Source: Chloroflexota bacterium (GTDB lineage: Bacteria > Chloroflexota > Dehalococcoidia > Bin125). From it: a stretch of 48,922 bases of DNA. Below, in pieces: positions 5,961-43,663 of this stretch. The notes beneath the pieces are model-generated. The model was not told the origin of the DNA and searched no databases. It saw nothing but the letters and a program-made list of their open reading frames with translations. The stretch spans positions 1-48,922 of the forward strand of contig JAPPFB010000022.1 in NCBI GenBank assembly GCA_028875225.1. The letters are read 5' to 3'. Position 1 is the first letter of the stretch. Every line of letters starts with the position of its first letter. Position numbers and translations under genes: made by a program.

Positions 5961-6776
5961 ATGTCCGACACGAACGGCGAGCCGACCGTCATTCTCGACA
6001 AGCGCGACGACGGCGTCGCTCTGATTACCTTGAACCGACCAGAGCGGCTGAATGCCTTCGGCGACGACCTGCTGCAACGATTGACCGAGGCGCTCGTCGA
6101 TTGTGAAGACGACCCCGAGGTTCGATGCGTGGCGTTGACCGGTGCCGGGCGCGGGTTCTCAGCCGGAGCCGACATCAACAACATGGCACGTGGTTCCAGC
6201 GGGCCGCCTCCCGGTCCCGGCGTGGTCAATCGGCGCAGCCATCGCAGCCAGCAGCAGACCTCGGGAATGCTGCATGAAATGGGTACGCCGACCGTTTCTC
6301 TGGTCAATGGGCCGGCCGCCGGCGGCGGACTCGGCCTGTGCCTGGCGACGGACTTCCGAATCGCCTCCGACCGGGCGCGTTTCGTCACGGCGTTTCGCAA
6401 CATCGGCGTATCGGGCGACTACGGCGTCGCCTGGTTCCTGAACCAGATGGTTGGGATCACGCGCGCCCGCGAGTTGCTGATGCTCGACCGCCGGATCAAC
6501 GCCGACGAAGCCGAGGCGCTCGGAATTGTCACGAAGATTGTGCCGCATGACGATCTGCTGTCCGAGGGGCTCGCGTTCTGCCGCGAACTGGCGCAGGGAC
6601 CAACCGCGGTGCTGTCGATGATGAAGTGGACGTTGAACTACGCGGCGACATCGAGCCTGAGTGACTCGCTGTACCAGGAGGGTTCGCACGTGATGCTGTC
6701 CTTCACCGGCGAGGACAACAAGGAGGCGGCACGCGCCTTCCTGGAAAAGCGCCCGCCGAATTTCGTCGGTCGGTAA
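5961..6776 (+). CDS. Enoyl-CoA hydratase/isomerase family (probable isomerase)
   Basis: 271-residue crotonase-fold protein. Oxyanion-hole segments GRGFSAGADI and NGPAAGGGLGL are present. Both glutamates used by true hydratases appear replaced: the GGGCEL-type Glu is Gly here, and the second lies in RFVTAFRNIG. An Asp is kept in IGVSGDYG, the position used by PaaG-like and dienoyl-CoA isomerases. I therefore infer an isomerase or other crotonase activity rather than simple hydration. GAAGGGA precedes ATG 5961. It stands alone, followed by a hairpin terminator. Confidence 0.82.
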   Translation: MSDTNGEPTVILDKRDDGVALITLNRPERLNAFGDDLLQRLTEALVDCEDDPEVRCVALTGAGRGFSAGADINNMARGSSGPPPGPGVVNRRSHRSQQQTSGMLHEMGTPTVSLVNGPAAGGGLGLCLATDFRIASDRARFVTAFRNIGVSGDYGVAWFLNQMVGITRARELLMLDRRINADEAEALGIVTKIVPHDDLLSEGLAFCRELAQGPTAVLSMMKWTLNYAATSSLSDSLYQEGSHVMLSFTGEDNKEAARAFLEKRPPNFVGR

Positions 6777-6803
6777 GTCAAGTACTGGCCCGGATAAACC
6801 GAA

Positions 6804-6828
6804 CCCCCGGACAAGAGTCCGGGGGTCG
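6804..6828. terminator. Hairpin terminator, probably bidirectional
   Basis: CCCCCGGAC, loop AAGAG-like bases, then GTCCGGGGG forms a 9-bp GC stem 30 bases after the crotonase stop. There is no long T tract on either side. It would also end transcripts coming from the minus-strand riboswitch region. Confidence 0.6.
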
Positions 6829-6857
6829 GCCAGGAAGGACGGGGACGGGCGAGCGAG

Positions 6858-7013
6858 AAACCCGTGCCCCTGAGTGCGCCGGGCGGTCGCTCCCGGCGTG
6901 ACTCTCACGTTCGCGGCCGATGACTGCCTCGCGGCAGTGGGCGAACCGGTGGAGCCGTGCTCAAGGCACGGGTTCTTGGTTTGCGCACTTGAGCTGCTGC
7001 TCTGGTGCGCATC
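6858..7013. other. Gene-free structured region with nested inverted repeats
   Basis: AACCCGTGCC (about 6859) is exactly complementary to GGCACGGGTT (about 6965), enclosing about 96 bases that hold smaller hairpins: CCGGGCGGTCGCTCCCGG, ACTGCCTCGCGGCAGT and CGTGCTCAAGGCACG (the last competes with the outer stem). A further pair TGCGCAC/GTGCGCA lies at about 6983-7010. Only a 35-codon frame is open on the minus strand. This looks like structured RNA downstream of the c-di-AMP riboswitch candidate, or a separate non-coding RNA; I do not recognise a known family. Confidence 0.4.
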
Positions 7014-7017
7014 TCCC

Positions 7018-7168
7018 TCGGTCGCCTACGGGGTTAGCTGACGGGTTCGGCGCGAAGGAGTGCGCCGTGCGATTCCGCTTCGATGAAGACGAAGATCGCA
7101 TTCACCCCAGAATGGTGGGTCCCCCGCTCCCCGATCGGCTGCTGGGCTTCTCGGGGATTCGGCCCGAA
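7018..7168 (-). promoter_or_regulatory. Cyclic di-AMP riboswitch (ydaO/yuaA type) candidate
   Basis: Read on the minus strand, the region carries the conserved blocks of the ydaO motif in order: GCCGAATC near 7160, GGGGGACCCA (7125-7116), GGGGTGAAT (7108-7100), then CGAACCCGTCAGCTAACC and GTAGGCG (7049-7023). These are known from actinobacterial and other leaders where c-di-AMP turns off cell-wall or potassium genes. Here no convincing gene follows on the minus strand before the hairpin at 6804-6828. Boundaries are approximate. Confidence 0.75.
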
Positions 7169-7352
7169 TATTCAGTTGTATGTGCAAGCCTACTCAGTTG
7201 CCCGTGCAATTGCCAGATGCGCGCCACATCGGCTTGCCGAGTGTTAACTGAGTGTGAACCTCGCACATACCGGGGAGCGTTCACACATCACGCGCATTCG
7301 AGGGTAGGCCCGTTCTCTCTCTCCGGGCGGCAGGGGGAACGGAACACCCCGT

Positions 7353-7550
7353 TCAGGGCTTGCAACCCTTTGCCAGGAGCTCCTTGCGCAAATCGTTGAT
7401 CTGGTCGTAGATCCGCCGAAGCTCAGGATTGGGACAGCCCAGAGGGCCCTCTCCGGGCTGTGGAGGCAACTTGCCGGGCATGTCATCGGCGAGCTTGTTC
7501 AAGCGGGTGCGCTCAGCGCGGATCTCTTCGCAGCGTGCGTCGTCTGCCAT
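7353..7550 (-). CDS. Small hypothetical protein
   Basis: 65 residues, highly charged and soluble, rich in Glu/Arg/Lys, with the pattern CEEIRAERTRLNKLADDM and a PNPELRRIYDQINDLRKEL helix near the C-terminus, likely coiled-coil. AGGAG stands 8 bases before ATG 7550. It follows the gene at 7561-7872 by 10 bases on the same strand, so the two may be co-transcribed and could read into the riboswitch region. No family recognised. Confidence 0.6.
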   Translation of the reverse strand: MADDARCEEIRAERTRLNKLADDMPGKLPPQPGEGPLGCPNPELRRIYDQINDLRKELLAKGCKP

Positions 7551-16424: not shown

Positions 16425-16447
16425 GGTTGAGTTCCTTTCTCGCTCGT

Positions 16448-39728: not shown

Positions 39729-40915
39729 GATGCCGCCTCCGTGTTCATCCGCCGTTGCCCCAGCCGCTCGATGCTGTAGGGAGCGAGCAACTCCGGCGTT
39801 TCGCCTGTCTCCATGGCCTCCGCCAGCCAGTGCGCGGTGGCTGGAGCCAGCAGAATTCCATGCTGGTAATGTCCCGTGGCGATCCACAGTCCCGGTTGAC
39901 CCGCTGACCCGACGATCGGCATGCGATCGGCGACGGCTGGACGCAGGCCGACGCTGTGCTCCTCGATCTCCACCTCACGAATTCGCCCAATCAGGCTGGA
40001 GGCCTCCGTCAGCAGGTCCTCTCGCGCCCGGTCCGTCGGCGTGAGATCCCATCCCGCTTCAGGCTCCTTGGTCGAAGCGACAATCAACTCGCCGTCCCGT
40101 CGCTGGGCGAGACTGACGGAGTTCGTGCGGATGACTCGGTCAATGATGCGCGGCCCTCGAAGTCGCAGCAGTTGCCCTTTCACGGGTCCAACTCCTGTGG
40201 GGGCCAGGGGCGATTCCCCGTCGACGGCCGCATCCACAATCTGATCGGACCACGGTCCGGCCGTGACCAGCACGGCGCGGGCTTCGAGCGTCTCCTGTTC
40301 ATCATTGGCATCGGGGCCGTGCAAGAACACACGCCAGGCGCCTGCCGCCTCGTCGTACTCGCCTCCAACCGCCGTTCGCTCTGTGCGGAGACTCACTCTG
40401 ATGTAGCCGATGGCGCGCTCCAGCGCTGAGAGCAGCCGCCGCGGATCGACCTGAACGTCCTCATCGACGAGCACGGCGCTGATCAGGCCTCCCGGCAGCT
40501 CCGGCTCGACCTGGAAGATCTGGCTTGCCTCGATCTTCTGAGAACGCAGACCGCGCTCCACTCGCTCCTGGTGCAACGCCTCGAGCTGCGCATCCTCTTC
40601 GGCTGTTCTGGCCACCCAGAGCGTGCCGTCCATGCGATACCCGGCGCTGCGGCGGCCAATCGACTCGACCTTGGCGATGAACTGGGGAAACCGGCGCAGA
40701 CTGTCGAGCTTCAACGGGAAGATGGCGTCGTCATCGCCGACCGGCAGCGTGGACGTGCCCAGCAGTCCCGCCGCGACACGGCTCGCCTGCTGACCGGGCC
40801 GCCCGCGTTCGATCAGGACCACCTTGTGGCCGCGCCTCCCCAACTCGAAGGCGCAGGTGAGACCGATCACGCCGGCCCCAACGATTGCGATGTCCCAGAC
40901 CTGTGGATCGCTCAT
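39725..40915 (-). CDS. thiO: Glycine oxidase, copy 1
   Basis: 396 residues. FAD-binding Rossmann motif IVGAGVIGLTCAFELGRRG, the SAGYRMDGTLWVA segment and the C-terminal VGLRPAVADRMPIVG and GHYQHGILLAPATA motifs of the DAO/ThiO family. It oxidises glycine to dehydroglycine for thiazole formation. ATG 40915 overlaps the second thiO gene by ATGA. It is more diverged in the middle than copy 2. Confidence 0.88.
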   Translation of the reverse strand: MSDPQVWDIAIVGAGVIGLTCAFELGRRGHKVVLIERGRPGQQASRVAAGLLGTSTLPVGDDDAIFPLKLDSLRRFPQFIAKVESIGRRSAGYRMDGTLWVARTAEEDAQLEALHQERVERGLRSQKIEASQIFQVEPELPGGLISAVLVDEDVQVDPRRLLSALERAIGYIRVSLRTERTAVGGEYDEAAGAWRVFLHGPDANDEQETLEARAVLVTAGPWSDQIVDAAVDGESPLAPTGVGPVKGQLLRLRGPRIIDRVIRTNSVSLAQRRDGELIVASTKEPEAGWDLTPTDRAREDLLTEASSLIGRIREVEIEEHSVGLRPAVADRMPIVGSAGQPGLWIATGHYQHGILLAPATAHWLAEAMETGETPELLAPYSIERLGQRRMNTEAAS

Positions 40916-42063
40916 CCCGCCGCCTCCTGCTGCTGTGCGATCAGGCGATCCACACCGAACCGCTCAATTGCCTCTGGGACGCTGCCGGTCGTCATCAGCT
41001 CGGCCATCCAGTGGGCCGTCGCCGGTGCGAGGATGACGCCGCCCCGGTAGTGTCCACCGGCGATGAATATGCCTTCACTGTCGGTCGGCCCCAACACCGG
41101 CTGATGGTCGGAGACGGCGGGCCGCAAGCCAACGTCGATTTCACTGACGTAGAGGTCGTAGAGGCCGGGCAGGATTTCGAAGGCGTAGCGCAACAGATCC
41201 AGCGTGCCGCCGGCAGTCGGCTGCATGTCGAAGCCCTGTTCCTCCTCGGTCGCCCCGAGCAACAGTTCGCCGCCGGCGCGCGGCACGATGTAGACGTCGC
41301 TGTTGCGCAGCACGTGATTGACCAGTAGTTGTCCCTTGAGGTGAACGATCTGACCCTTGATTGGCCGCATACCGATCCGCGGCAGCGGCGTGACCAGACC
41401 CTCCTCCAACCAGACTCCCGCCGCGAGCAAGACCTGTTCGGACCGCAGAACTGTCTGGTCACCTGGGGAGTGCAGTGTCAACTCAATCCGTCCGCCGGTC
41501 CGTTCCACCGTCCTGACAGCCGTGCGCTCGACCAGCTCCACCCCGACGTTCCGGCAGGCCGCCGCGAGTGCCGGGACCAGCTTGCGGCTGTTGACCTGGT
41601 GATCGGTCTCGACCAGCAGTCCGCCGATGATCCTTGGTGACAGGTAGGGTTCGATCTGCCGCGTTTCCCGACCGGTCAGTCGCCGAGCGGGCAGGCCGCG
41701 ATCCTCCTGAATCTTGCGGATGTGTTCCAACTCCAGTTCGTCGTCCCGGTGTCGCGAGACCCACAGCGTTCCTTCGTCCCGGTATCCGCAAGAGAGTCCG
41801 CTCGCGGCTTCGATCTCCAAGACGAACGCGGGATATCGACTCAGGCTGTCAAGTTGCAGCTCGACCAACTCGGGAGGAGTCGTCTCCACTTCGAACGACG
41901 GCGTCAGCATTCCGGCGGCGACGGTTGACGCGCCGAACCCTGCTTCTTCCCGCTCGATTACGATGACCGACTTCCCCCGCCTGGCCAACTCGAACGCGCA
42001 GGACAGGCCGACCACGCCGGCGCCGACGATCGCAACCTCAGTTGAACGCGACTTGCTGGTCAT
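40912..42063 (-). CDS. thiO: Glycine oxidase, copy 2
   Basis: 383 residues with the same family motifs: IVGAGVVGLSCAFELARRG, the YRDEGTLWVSRHRDDE segment, GMRPIKGQIVHLKG and GGHYRGGVILAPATAHW. It is a tandem paralog of the neighbouring gene; the shared ends (ILLAPATAHWLAE versus ILAPATAHWMAE) show common descent. Having two overlapping thiO genes in one operon is unusual. One copy may handle another amine substrate. ATG 42063 overlaps thiE by ATGA. Confidence 0.88.
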   Translation of the reverse strand: MTSKSRSTEVAIVGAGVVGLSCAFELARRGKSVIVIEREEAGFGASTVAAGMLTPSFEVETTPPELVELQLDSLSRYPAFVLEIEAASGLSCGYRDEGTLWVSRHRDDELELEHIRKIQEDRGLPARRLTGRETRQIEPYLSPRIIGGLLVETDHQVNSRKLVPALAAACRNVGVELVERTAVRTVERTGGRIELTLHSPGDQTVLRSEQVLLAAGVWLEEGLVTPLPRIGMRPIKGQIVHLKGQLLVNHVLRNSDVYIVPRAGGELLLGATEEEQGFDMQPTAGGTLDLLRYAFEILPGLYDLYVSEIDVGLRPAVSDHQPVLGPTDSEGIFIAGGHYRGGVILAPATAHWMAELMTTGSVPEAIERFGVDRLIAQQQEAAG

Positions 42064-42707
42064 GTCAGCGCCCGTTCGATCGCGTCGGCGAATGCTCGGC
42101 AGGCCGCCTGGGGATCGTCCTGACAGACCACGGCCGACAGCACGGCCACGCCGTATGCGCCGGCGGCGATCACGTCGCCGACCCGGTCCGCAGTGATGCT
42201 GCCAATCCCAATCACCGGCTTGTCGACTGCGGCGCAGATCTCCGCGAATCGTTCCAGTCCCAACATCGGGGCGGCGCGGTTCCCCTTCGACGTCGTACCG
42301 AAGACCGGTCCGACGCCGAGATAGTCGACCGGCTGCTTCGCTACCTTGACTGCCTCCTCGACGGAGTTGGCCGTTCCACCGATGACTGCGTCCGATCCCA
42401 GAATCTGTCGGGCGACGTATGGCGGCAGGTCCTCACGACCCAGATGAACCGCGGTGGCGCCGACAGCAGCGGCAACATCGACACGATCGTCGATCAACAG
42501 GGTCGTACCGAACTCGCGGCAGGCGAGGCTCATCAGTACGGCCACGCGCATCATTTCCTTCGTCGACATTTGCCGCTTCTCGCGGTACTGAATGACATCG
42601 GCACCGCCGGCAGCCGCGGCAGCAGCGAGTTCGACGTGACTGAACCGATCCTGGAGGACCTCATCGGTGATCACGTGGAGTCGGCCGACCTGCTTCTGCT
42701 CAGTCAC
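42060..42707 (-). CDS. thiE: Thiamine phosphate synthase
   Basis: 215 residues. Canonical ThiE motifs: VIQYREKRQMSTKEM, LLIDDRVDVAAAVGATAVHL, GREDLPP, IGGTANS, DYLGVGPVFGTTSK and IGIGSI. It couples HMP-diphosphate with thiazole phosphate. GTG 42707 overlaps the thiD stop by 8 bases. This is the true ThiE, in contrast to the TenI-like protein at 34695-35297. Confidence 0.95.
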   Translation of the reverse strand: MTEQKQVGRLHVITDEVLQDRFSHVELAAAAAAGGADVIQYREKRQMSTKEMMRVAVLMSLACREFGTTLLIDDRVDVAAAVGATAVHLGREDLPPYVARQILGSDAVIGGTANSVEEAVKVAKQPVDYLGVGPVFGTTSKGNRAAPMLGLERFAEICAAVDKPVIGIGSITADRVGDVIAAGAYGVAVLSAVVCQDDPQAACRAFADAIERALT

Positions 42708-43491
42708 GGCGCGTCATCCAGAAATGGTCGGTGGGGCCGACCCCGTGTCCGATGTCCAGCCCGCCGCGGATCGCCTCGGTTACGTACTCCTTCGCGTTGC
42801 CAATCGCCTCATGCAGCACCTCGCCCCGCGCCAGCCGAGCGGCGATCGCCGACGCGTACGTGCAACCAGTCCCATGCGTGTGTCGGTGGTTGATCCATTC
42901 GCCGGGGAACAACTGAGTCGAGTCTGTTGTGACCAGGACATCGGTCGCCGGCGCGCCCTTGAGGTGTCCGCCCTTGACCAACGCAGCGCTGGCCCCGGCC
43001 TCAACCAGCAGCTCACCAGCCTGCTGCGCGTCATCGACGGTGCTGATGGACAGGCCGGTCAGCGCCTCGGCCTCGTGGACGTTGGGTGTGATCAGCGTTG
43101 CGAGCGGCAGCAGCTTCCGTCGCAGGGTGGATGCGGCATCCTCAGCGAGGAGGGGGAATCCTGTTTTCGAGATCATCACCGGATCGACGACGACGAACGG
43201 CGACCGCCGACGTTGGATCTCGCTCGCGACCAGCTCAATCATGTCCGAGCCGCCCAGCATGCCGGTCTTCACGCCGGCGACATCGAGGTCCTCGAAGACG
43301 GACGCGATCTGCTGCCGAACGGCATCGAGCGGCAGCGGCCAGGCGCCCTGCACGCCGAGTGTGTTCTGCGCGGTTACGGCTGTAATCACGGTTGCCGCGT
43401 AGGCGCCGTTGGCCGTGATCGACTTGAGGTCGGCCTGGATGCCGGCTCCAGCCGAGGAGTCGGATCCAGCGATGGAGCAAACGACGCGCAC
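42700..43491 (-). CDS. thiD: Hydroxymethylpyrimidine / phosphomethylpyrimidine kinase
   Basis: 263 residues from GTG 43491, the length of ThiD; GAGGG stands about 8 bases upstream. The upstream in-frame extension to 43614 overlaps the riboswitch and is not coding. Ribokinase-fold motifs: CSIAGSDSSAGAGIQADLK, VVDPVMISKTG, LITPNVHEAEAL and HTHGTGCTYASAIAARLARG. It phosphorylates HMP twice for ThiE. First gene of the thiamine operon. Confidence 0.93.
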   Translation of the reverse strand: MRVVCSIAGSDSSAGAGIQADLKSITANGAYAATVITAVTAQNTLGVQGAWPLPLDAVRQQIASVFEDLDVAGVKTGMLGGSDMIELVASEIQRRRSPFVVVDPVMISKTGFPLLAEDAASTLRRKLLPLATLITPNVHEAEALTGLSISTVDDAQQAGELLVEAGASAALVKGGHLKGAPATDVLVTTDSTQLFPGEWINHRHTHGTGCTYASAIAARLARGEVLHEAIGNAKEYVTEAIRGGLDIGHGVGPTDHFWMTRRD

Positions 43492-43551
43492 GATCTGCCC
43501 TCGCTTGGGGTGATCGACTGTCGTTCGGGTGGGCCTGAAGGTTGTTGCGCT

Positions 43552-43642
43552 CCCTGCGCCGGCATTACCCGGATCAGGTTCGGCGGGTGTGTTCTCAGGC
43601 CCAAAACCCGTCACCTCGACGGTCGGACCACCCCGGCTTGTT
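43552..43642 (-). promoter_or_regulatory. TPP riboswitch (thi box)
   Basis: On the minus strand it reads GCCGGGGTGG (5' helix), GGCCTGAGAACACACCCG, AACCTGATCCGGGTAATG, CCGGCGCAGGGAG; these are the conserved CUGAGA, ACCUGAUC and GGGUAAUGCCGGCGCAGGGA elements of the TPP aptamer. It lies 60 bases before the thiD start, so thiamine pyrophosphate should repress the whole operon. The short space to thiD leaves room for a translation-blocking platform near the start codon or a small terminator. Confidence 0.93.
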
Positions 43643-43663
43643 TCTCCCTGGAGATTAACACAT

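What the first reader, a model, noticed from the sequence alone, without database searches (positions are those of the whole stretch)
6777..7352. Orphan c-di-AMP riboswitch without an obvious target gene
All main ydaO/yuaA blocks are present on the minus strand (GGGGGACCCA, GGGGTGAAT, CGAACCCGTCAGCTAACC, GTAGGCG). Such riboswitches normally precede wall-hydrolase, Rpf-like or ion-transport genes. Here about 200 gene-free bases and a terminator follow. The target was lost, is a very small peptide, or the RNA acts in trans.
Basis: partly seen in the sequence, partly recalled or inferred. Interest (0 to 1): 0.68.

Follow-up and report, generated by a model that had tools for sequence, protein, structure and literature searches.

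The report
c-di-AMP riboswitch driving a noncoding RNA
A bacterial sensor for the second messenger c-di-AMP, which normally sits in front of a protein gene, here heads a self-contained, strongly conserved RNA with no protein gene; across a family of Chloroflexota it seems to control a small noncoding RNA instead.

Summary
The riboswitch is real: RF00379 at 7174..7008 (-), 88 bits, E 2.6e-19. But it is neither a relic nor target-less. In all 15 available species of the genus, and in 4 genomes from three sister genera, the aptamer is followed by the same noncoding module: a stem-loop with invariant loop core UCUCGCUC, a CCUUCC/CCUCC stretch and a terminator-like hairpin. In this genus the module is more conserved (0.95/0.88 identity) than the flanking protein genes. 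A model of the module found strong hits in 19 of 393 class genomes, all next to this aptamer; the one family member without the aptamer lacks the module too. No start codon with a common frame is conserved. In sister genera a classical attenuator lies between aptamer and module. In this genus it is replaced by a linker hairpin mimicking both P1 strands, with compensatory changes. Best reading: a promoter-aptamer-switch-sRNA-terminator unit in which c-di-AMP turns the sRNA off. Conservation, structure and lack of an ORF are shown; ligand binding, switch direction and trans action are inferred; no conserved target was found. Riboswitch-controlled ncRNAs are known for B12 and SAM; I found none for c-di-AMP.

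The parts
7187..7215 (-). promoter-like element: TGGCAA (7215-7210), 17-nt spacer, TAGGCT (7192-7187); start of transcription expected near 7180
   Evidence: aligned upstream regions of 15 genus loci show a conserved GCA(A/T) box, spacer and TA-N3-T box, followed by conserved (C/T)ACAACTGAATA or ACAGAATA; start site inferred. The consensus scan did not flag it.
6791..7180 (-). whole predicted noncoding transcript (about 390 nt)
   Evidence: conserved from promoter to terminator-like hairpin in 15/15 genus members; fold of 7290..6770 has z -8.26 against 100 shuffles
7008..7174 (-). c-di-AMP (ydaO/yuaA) aptamer, RF00379
   Evidence: cmscan 88 bits, E 2.6e-19; one copy per genome in all 15 genus members
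7159..7168 (-). aptamer 5' strand TTCGGGCCGA (P1 5' side), also pairs with linker 6921..6910 (helix X)
   Evidence: 97.3% of cells paired, 2 pairs with changes on both sides, covariation score reached by 0/500 shuffles; slid controls 13-47% paired
7013..7026 (-). P1 3' strand and tail GGCGACCGAGGGAG; tail complementary to aptamer loop CUCCUUC (ydaO pseudoknot); also pairs with linker 6954..6940 (helix W)
   Evidence: RNAalifold; helix W nearly invariant so no covariation evidence
6910..6954 (-). linker hairpin region CTCCACCGGTTCGCCC...ATCGGCCGCGAA that mimics both P1 strands; stands where sister genera have the attenuator
6967..6974 (-). AACCCGTG, can pair with 6866..6859 (helix Y), which excludes the module hairpin
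   Evidence: 7 of 8 pairs invariant in 15/15; outermost pair A-U becomes G-C in L021
6872..6904 (-). hairpin H, GAGTCACGCCGGG-AGCGACCG-CCCGGCGCACTC
   Evidence: all 11 pairs kept in 15/15, 3 of them with one-sided (G-U) changes; loop AGCGACCG invariant
6841..6870 (-). module stem-loop M: GGGGCACGGG-TTTCTCGCTCG-CCCGTCCCC (loop 6860..6850)
   Evidence: loop core TCTCGCTC in 19/19 family genomes with the aptamer although the stem differs between genera (GGACAGGG/CCCTGTCC in sisters); strong hits of model R1 only in this family
6831..6840 (-). unpaired pyrimidine stretch GTCCTTCCTG (GCCTCCTG in sisters), complementary to Shine-Dalgarno-like sequence
   Evidence: conserved in A2
6798..6832 (-). terminator-like hairpin GGCCGACCCCCGGAC-TCTT-GTCCGGGGGTTCGGTTT
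   Evidence: core stem pairs kept in 15/15

Best explanation
This is a stand-alone regulatory RNA gene. A c-di-AMP aptamer is transcribed from its own promoter and controls, instead of a protein gene, a conserved noncoding 3' module (stem-loop with loop UUUCUCGCUCG, then CCUUCC/CCUCC, then a terminator-like hairpin). In sister genera the control is a classical attenuator: c-di-AMP stabilises P1, the terminator forms and the module is not made; without ligand the aptamer's 5' strand pairs with the terminator's 3' strand and the module is transcribed. In this genus the attenuator has become a linker hairpin without a U tract that can exchange strands with P1. Without ligand, helices X+W form and the module hairpin is displayed; with ligand, P1 forms and AACCCGUG can pair with the module's 5' stem (helix Y) and unfold it. 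Either way c-di-AMP switches the module off. The module probably acts in trans through its CU-rich loop and SD-complementary stretch, on mRNAs or a protein not yet known. Shown: aptamer, family-wide conservation, no conserved ORF, compensatory changes in helix X, module linked to aptamer. Inferred: transcription, ligand binding, direction of the switch, action in trans. My estimates: 'conserved noncoding output' about 0.85, 'c-di-AMP turns it off' about 0.55, 'base-pairing sRNA' about 0.45.
For: RF00379 88 bits; one aptamer in 15/15 genus genomes. Module model R1: strong hits (E<1e-10) in 19/393 class genomes, all from this family and one per genome at that strength, all downstream of the aptamer; G017 lacks both but has a diadenylate cyclase domain. 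Identity 0.95/0.88 across 6899..6800 against 0.19 in 7349..7250 and about 0.8 in flanking genes. Stem changes with loop kept. No conserved start with a common frame. Conserved promoter-like element. Sister genera: attenuator between aptamer and module, terminator and antiterminator states within about 8 kcal/mol in all four; in G019 and G015 a convergent ORF follows the module, so there the module is not a leader. Helix X covariation 0/500 shuffles. Forced X+W: module hairpin 0.93 or more in 13/15, Y zero in 15/15. Diadenylate cyclase domain in the own genome. c-di-AMP riboswitches are described as off-switches in Bacillus and Corynebacterium (PMC9960051).
Against: No transcript or binding data. 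In the P1 state, with the tail held in the pseudoknot, Y exceeds M in only 10 of 15 sequences and M dominates in others (for example L019, L020, L029, L032), so the on/off direction in this genus is not settled by folding. Y excludes X+W only if pseudoknots are disallowed. Helices W, M, H and Y hardly vary within the genus, so they carry little covariation; the X changes represent about two events. No conserved antisense target. The genus aptamer carries C for A in the conserved (U/A)AGG block, which might weaken or change ligand binding. In G016 and G018 a codirectional gene lies further downstream.
Confidence: 0.6

Rival explanations
1. The module is a protein-binding decoy (like Rli55/EutX), not an antisense RNA: the hairpin pair H+M with invariant loops AGCGACCG and UUUCUCGCUCG sequesters an RNA-binding protein.
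For: Two adjacent hairpins with (nearly) invariant loops in the genus; no conserved mRNA complement found; precedent in B12-riboswitch RNAs (PMC8383071).
Against: Hairpin H is not conserved in sequence in sister genera; no protein partner known.
Confidence: 0.3
2. Ordinary riboswitch whose gene was lost or moved; the rest is an expression platform that has not yet decayed.
For: In sister genera G016 and G018 a codirectional NAD(P)H-hydrate-epimerase-like ORF (assigned by eye) lies further downstream; the aptamer precedes protein genes elsewhere in the class.
Against: Orphan state in all 15 species; module more conserved than protein genes; a terminator-like hairpin closes the unit; in G019 and G015 the next ORF is convergent.
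Confidence: 0.07
3. The target is a very small peptide downstream of the aptamer.
For: A 35-aa ORF starts at 7012 in the window.
Against: An ORF of that kind with ATG at this place is open in only 4 of 15 sequences (30-35 aa) and frames diverge; no start codon with a common frame and stop.
Confidence: 0.03
4. Antisense control of the convergent enoyl-CoA hydratase gene by read-through past the terminator-like hairpin, with c-di-AMP modulating read-through.
For: The convergent gene ends at 6776, about 20 nt beyond the hairpin; weak U tract; the neighbour is kept in the genus.
Against: The convergent ORF is a different one in sister genera while the module is the same; it does not explain the invariant loop.
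Confidence: 0.07

Closest known systems
ydaO/yuaA c-di-AMP riboswitch (RF00379)
   Same: Aptamer meets the family model far above its cut-off; tail complementary to loop CUCCUUC as in the ydaO pseudoknot; attenuator of the off-switch layout in sister genera.
   Different: No protein gene is controlled. In this genus the (U/A)AGG block reads ACGG in 15/15, hairpin insertions are long, and the attenuator is replaced by a linker without U tract.
B12-riboswitch-controlled ncRNAs Rli55 (Listeria) and EutX (Enterococcus)
   Same: A ligand aptamer governs a noncoding trans-acting RNA (PMC8383071).
   Different: Other ligand, other phylum, no EutV-type binding site known here; a free-standing unit conserved through a family.
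SAM riboswitch SreA (Listeria)
   Same: A riboswitch transcript can act in trans (PMC8383071).
   Different: SreA is the terminated leader of a protein gene; here the conserved module lies beyond the switch and there is no protein gene.

Membership tests
c-di-AMP riboswitch aptamer (RF00379) | covariance-model score above gathering threshold, full-length match | tested here: met
   88 bits against 38, model 1-134
c-di-AMP riboswitch aptamer (RF00379) | conserved core blocks incl. (U/A)AGG | tested here: inconclusive
   all other core blocks present, but (U/A)AGG reads ACGG in 15/15 genus members
c-di-AMP riboswitch aptamer (RF00379) | binds c-di-AMP | not testable with these tools
   diadenylate cyclase family PF02457 present in the genome, which is supporting context only
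cis-acting riboswitch in front of a protein gene | codirectional protein gene downstream under its control | tested here: not met
   no conserved ORF; convergent gene follows
riboswitch-controlled trans-acting ncRNA (Rli55/EutX kind) | conserved noncoding output downstream of the aptamer | tested here: met
   module conserved and always linked to the aptamer; a single transcript is inferred from promoter-like and terminator-like ends
riboswitch-controlled trans-acting ncRNA (Rli55/EutX kind) | known trans target (mRNA or protein) | tested here: inconclusive
   exact complements of the loop lie at unrelated, mostly coding sites; none found conserved
any Rfam sRNA family | match of the module to a known family | tested here: not met
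   E-value search of 6700..7360: nothing above chance except RF00379

The most novel reading that the evidence does not exclude
An allosteric small RNA: in this genus c-di-AMP does not decide whether the sRNA is transcribed but refolds the finished ~390-nt RNA by strand exchange between P1 and a P1-mimicking linker, hiding or showing a conserved targeting loop. It would be a second-messenger sensor and a trans-acting RNA regulator in one molecule, derived from an ancestral attenuator.
Probability: 0.3. Interest if true: 0.82.

Novelty: new variant of a known kind. Interest (0 to 1): 0.64.

Why it matters
c-di-AMP riboswitches are understood as cis off-switches for protein genes (transport, cell wall). 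A family-wide case whose output is a noncoding RNA would put c-di-AMP at the head of an RNA regulon, extend the few riboswitch-ncRNA cases (B12, SAM) to a second messenger and to Chloroflexota, and, because sister genera keep an attenuator, show how an expression platform may turn into an allosteric RNA.

Tried and rejected
Small peptide target: no conserved start with a common frame. Lost gene: made unlikely by conservation. Known RNA family for the downstream part: none. Module elsewhere in the class: weak hits at E about 1e-3 (L063-L071) have no aptamer nearby and are treated as chance. The exact-pattern scan of genome contigs was too loose and mostly returned chance hits; it served only to name relatives (Dehalococcoidia jk18x9bins.53, Chloroflexi bin125, COS3_bin_3). 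Antisense target search with the loop complement: 11-mer sites are more frequent than reversed-pattern controls, but mostly inside unrelated coding sequence; two sites abut a Shine-Dalgarno (window 16446..16436 (-), and L196) in different genes, so no conserved target. Unconstrained folding to read off switch direction gave inconsistent answers between species. Literature search found no c-di-AMP riboswitch controlling an ncRNA, within an open-access library only.

Full report
The 231 bases between the aptamer and 6777 contain no recognisable protein gene: the longest same-strand ORF starting after the aptamer core is 35 aa, has no Pfam match, and its ATG opens an ORF of 30-35 aa in only 4 of 15 relatives. 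The next gene (enoyl-CoA hydratase, 5961..6776 +) is convergent.

The window is contig 5 of a 3.2-Mb genome with one RF00379 hit. All 14 other genomes of the genus also have exactly one. The 15 loci are conserved from promoter to terminator: a promoter-like TGGCAA-17 nt-TAGGCT element, a conserved start region, the aptamer, a linker, and a 3' module. Mean pairwise identity (10 loci, 50-base steps) is 0.95 and 0.88 across 6899..6800, about 0.8 in the neighbouring protein genes, and 0.19 in the intergenic stretch 7349..7250. A gene remnant would not look like that.

The 3' module is a stem-loop with loop UUUCUCGCUCG, a pyrimidine stretch (CCUUCCUG), and a GC-rich terminator-like hairpin. In sister genera of the same family (G015, G016, G018, G019) the same module follows the aptamer with a different stem (GGACAGGG/CCCUGUCC instead of GGGGCACGGG/CCCGNCCCC) but the same loop core UCUCGCUC and a GCCUCCUG stretch. 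Changing stems around an unchanged loop is the mark of a selected RNA hairpin. A covariance model of the module (R1) run over 393 genomes of the class found 19 with E below 1e-10, all in this family; each strong hit lies downstream of the RF00379 aptamer. These 19 include the 14 sequences the model was built from, so the informative part is the absence elsewhere and the linkage. One family member (G017) lacks both aptamer and module while keeping the c-di-AMP-making domain. The remaining weak hits (E around 1e-3) have no aptamer nearby. No Rfam family other than RF00379 matches the region.

In the sister genera a classical attenuator (hairpin plus U run, for example GAUCGGCUUUCUUU) sits between the aptamer and the module. 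Constrained folding puts the P1+terminator and the antiterminator states within about 8 kcal/mol of each other in all four, with the aptamer's GCCGA strand pairing the terminator's UCGGC strand in the second. That is the usual layout of an off-switch, as described for c-di-AMP riboswitches (PMC9960051). In G019 and G015 a convergent ORF follows the module, so there too the module is the end of the unit; in G016 and G018 a codirectional ORF lies further downstream.

In the window's genus the U run is gone. The linker instead holds CGGUUCGCC...AUCGGCCGCGAA, whose two arms are complementary to the two P1 strands. Helix X (aptamer 5' strand with AUCGGCCGCGAA) is formed by 97.3% of cells, has two pairs with changes on both sides (C-G to G-C in four sequences, U-A to G-U in two), and a covariation score not reached by any of 500 shuffles; slid versions pair 13-47%. 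These are about two evolutionary events, so the support is real but modest. Helix W (P1 3' strand plus tail with CUCC-ACCGGUUCGCC) is almost invariant and so untested. A further helix, Y (AACCCGUG with CACGGGUU), would disrupt the module hairpin; its outermost pair changes from A-U to G-C in L021.

With X and W forced, the module hairpin has probability 0.93 or more in 13 of 15 species and Y is zero in all; with P1 forced and the tail held back for the pseudoknot, Y exceeds the module hairpin in 10 of 15. I read this as: ligand-free, module shown; ligand-bound, module hidden in most species. That agrees with the off logic in the sister genera, but the folding alone does not settle it, and free folding was inconsistent between species.

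What the module does is open. Its loop and CCUUCC/CCUCC stretch look like antisense elements. Complements of the loop occur in genus genomes more often than the reversed control, but mostly in unrelated coding sequence; two abut a Shine-Dalgarno in unrelated genes. A protein partner, as for Rli55 and EutX (PMC8383071), is a serious alternative. A review calls trans-acting riboswitches rare (PMC7266159), and I found no c-di-AMP example in the searchable library, which is limited to open-access papers.

One peculiarity of the aptamer itself: the conserved (U/A)AGG block is ACGG in all 15 genus members, while nearly all other aptamers sampled in the class keep the A. Ligand binding by this variant must be tested, not assumed. 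The genome does encode a diadenylate cyclase domain.

Noticed in passing
window 43645..43534 (-): TPP riboswitch (RF00059, 60.8 bits) in front of what look by eye like thiD (43614..42700 -, true start likely further in), thiE (42707..42060 -) and thiO (42063..40912 -) genes: an ordinary thiamin operon.
   Followed up: partly
window 7550..7353 (-): 65-aa gene (MADDARCEEIRAERTRLNKL...) directly upstream, kept in most genus loci, no Pfam family; a small unknown protein.
   Followed up: partly
L034 1501-1642, L035 1501-1643: In sister genus g5 a second RF00379 copy precedes a lysine 2,3-aminomutase-like gene (by eye), which would fit c-di-AMP control of a beta-lysine type osmolyte.
   Followed up: no
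L003, L009, L017, L025, L036: Other class members place RF00379 before trehalose-phosphate-synthase-like, glycosyltransferase-like and small zinc-ribbon proteins (by eye).
   Followed up: no
window 16446..16436 (-): CGAGCGAGAAA, an exact complement of the module loop, abuts the AAAGGA Shine-Dalgarno of another enoyl-CoA hydratase-like ORF; a similar SD-adjacent site is in L196 upstream of a different gene. Not shown to be conserved, possibly chance.
   Followed up: partly
window aptamer 7174..7008, and all 15 genus loci: (U/A)AGG block of the ydaO aptamer reads ACGG in 15/15; a possible variant-ligand or weakened aptamer.
   Followed up: partly
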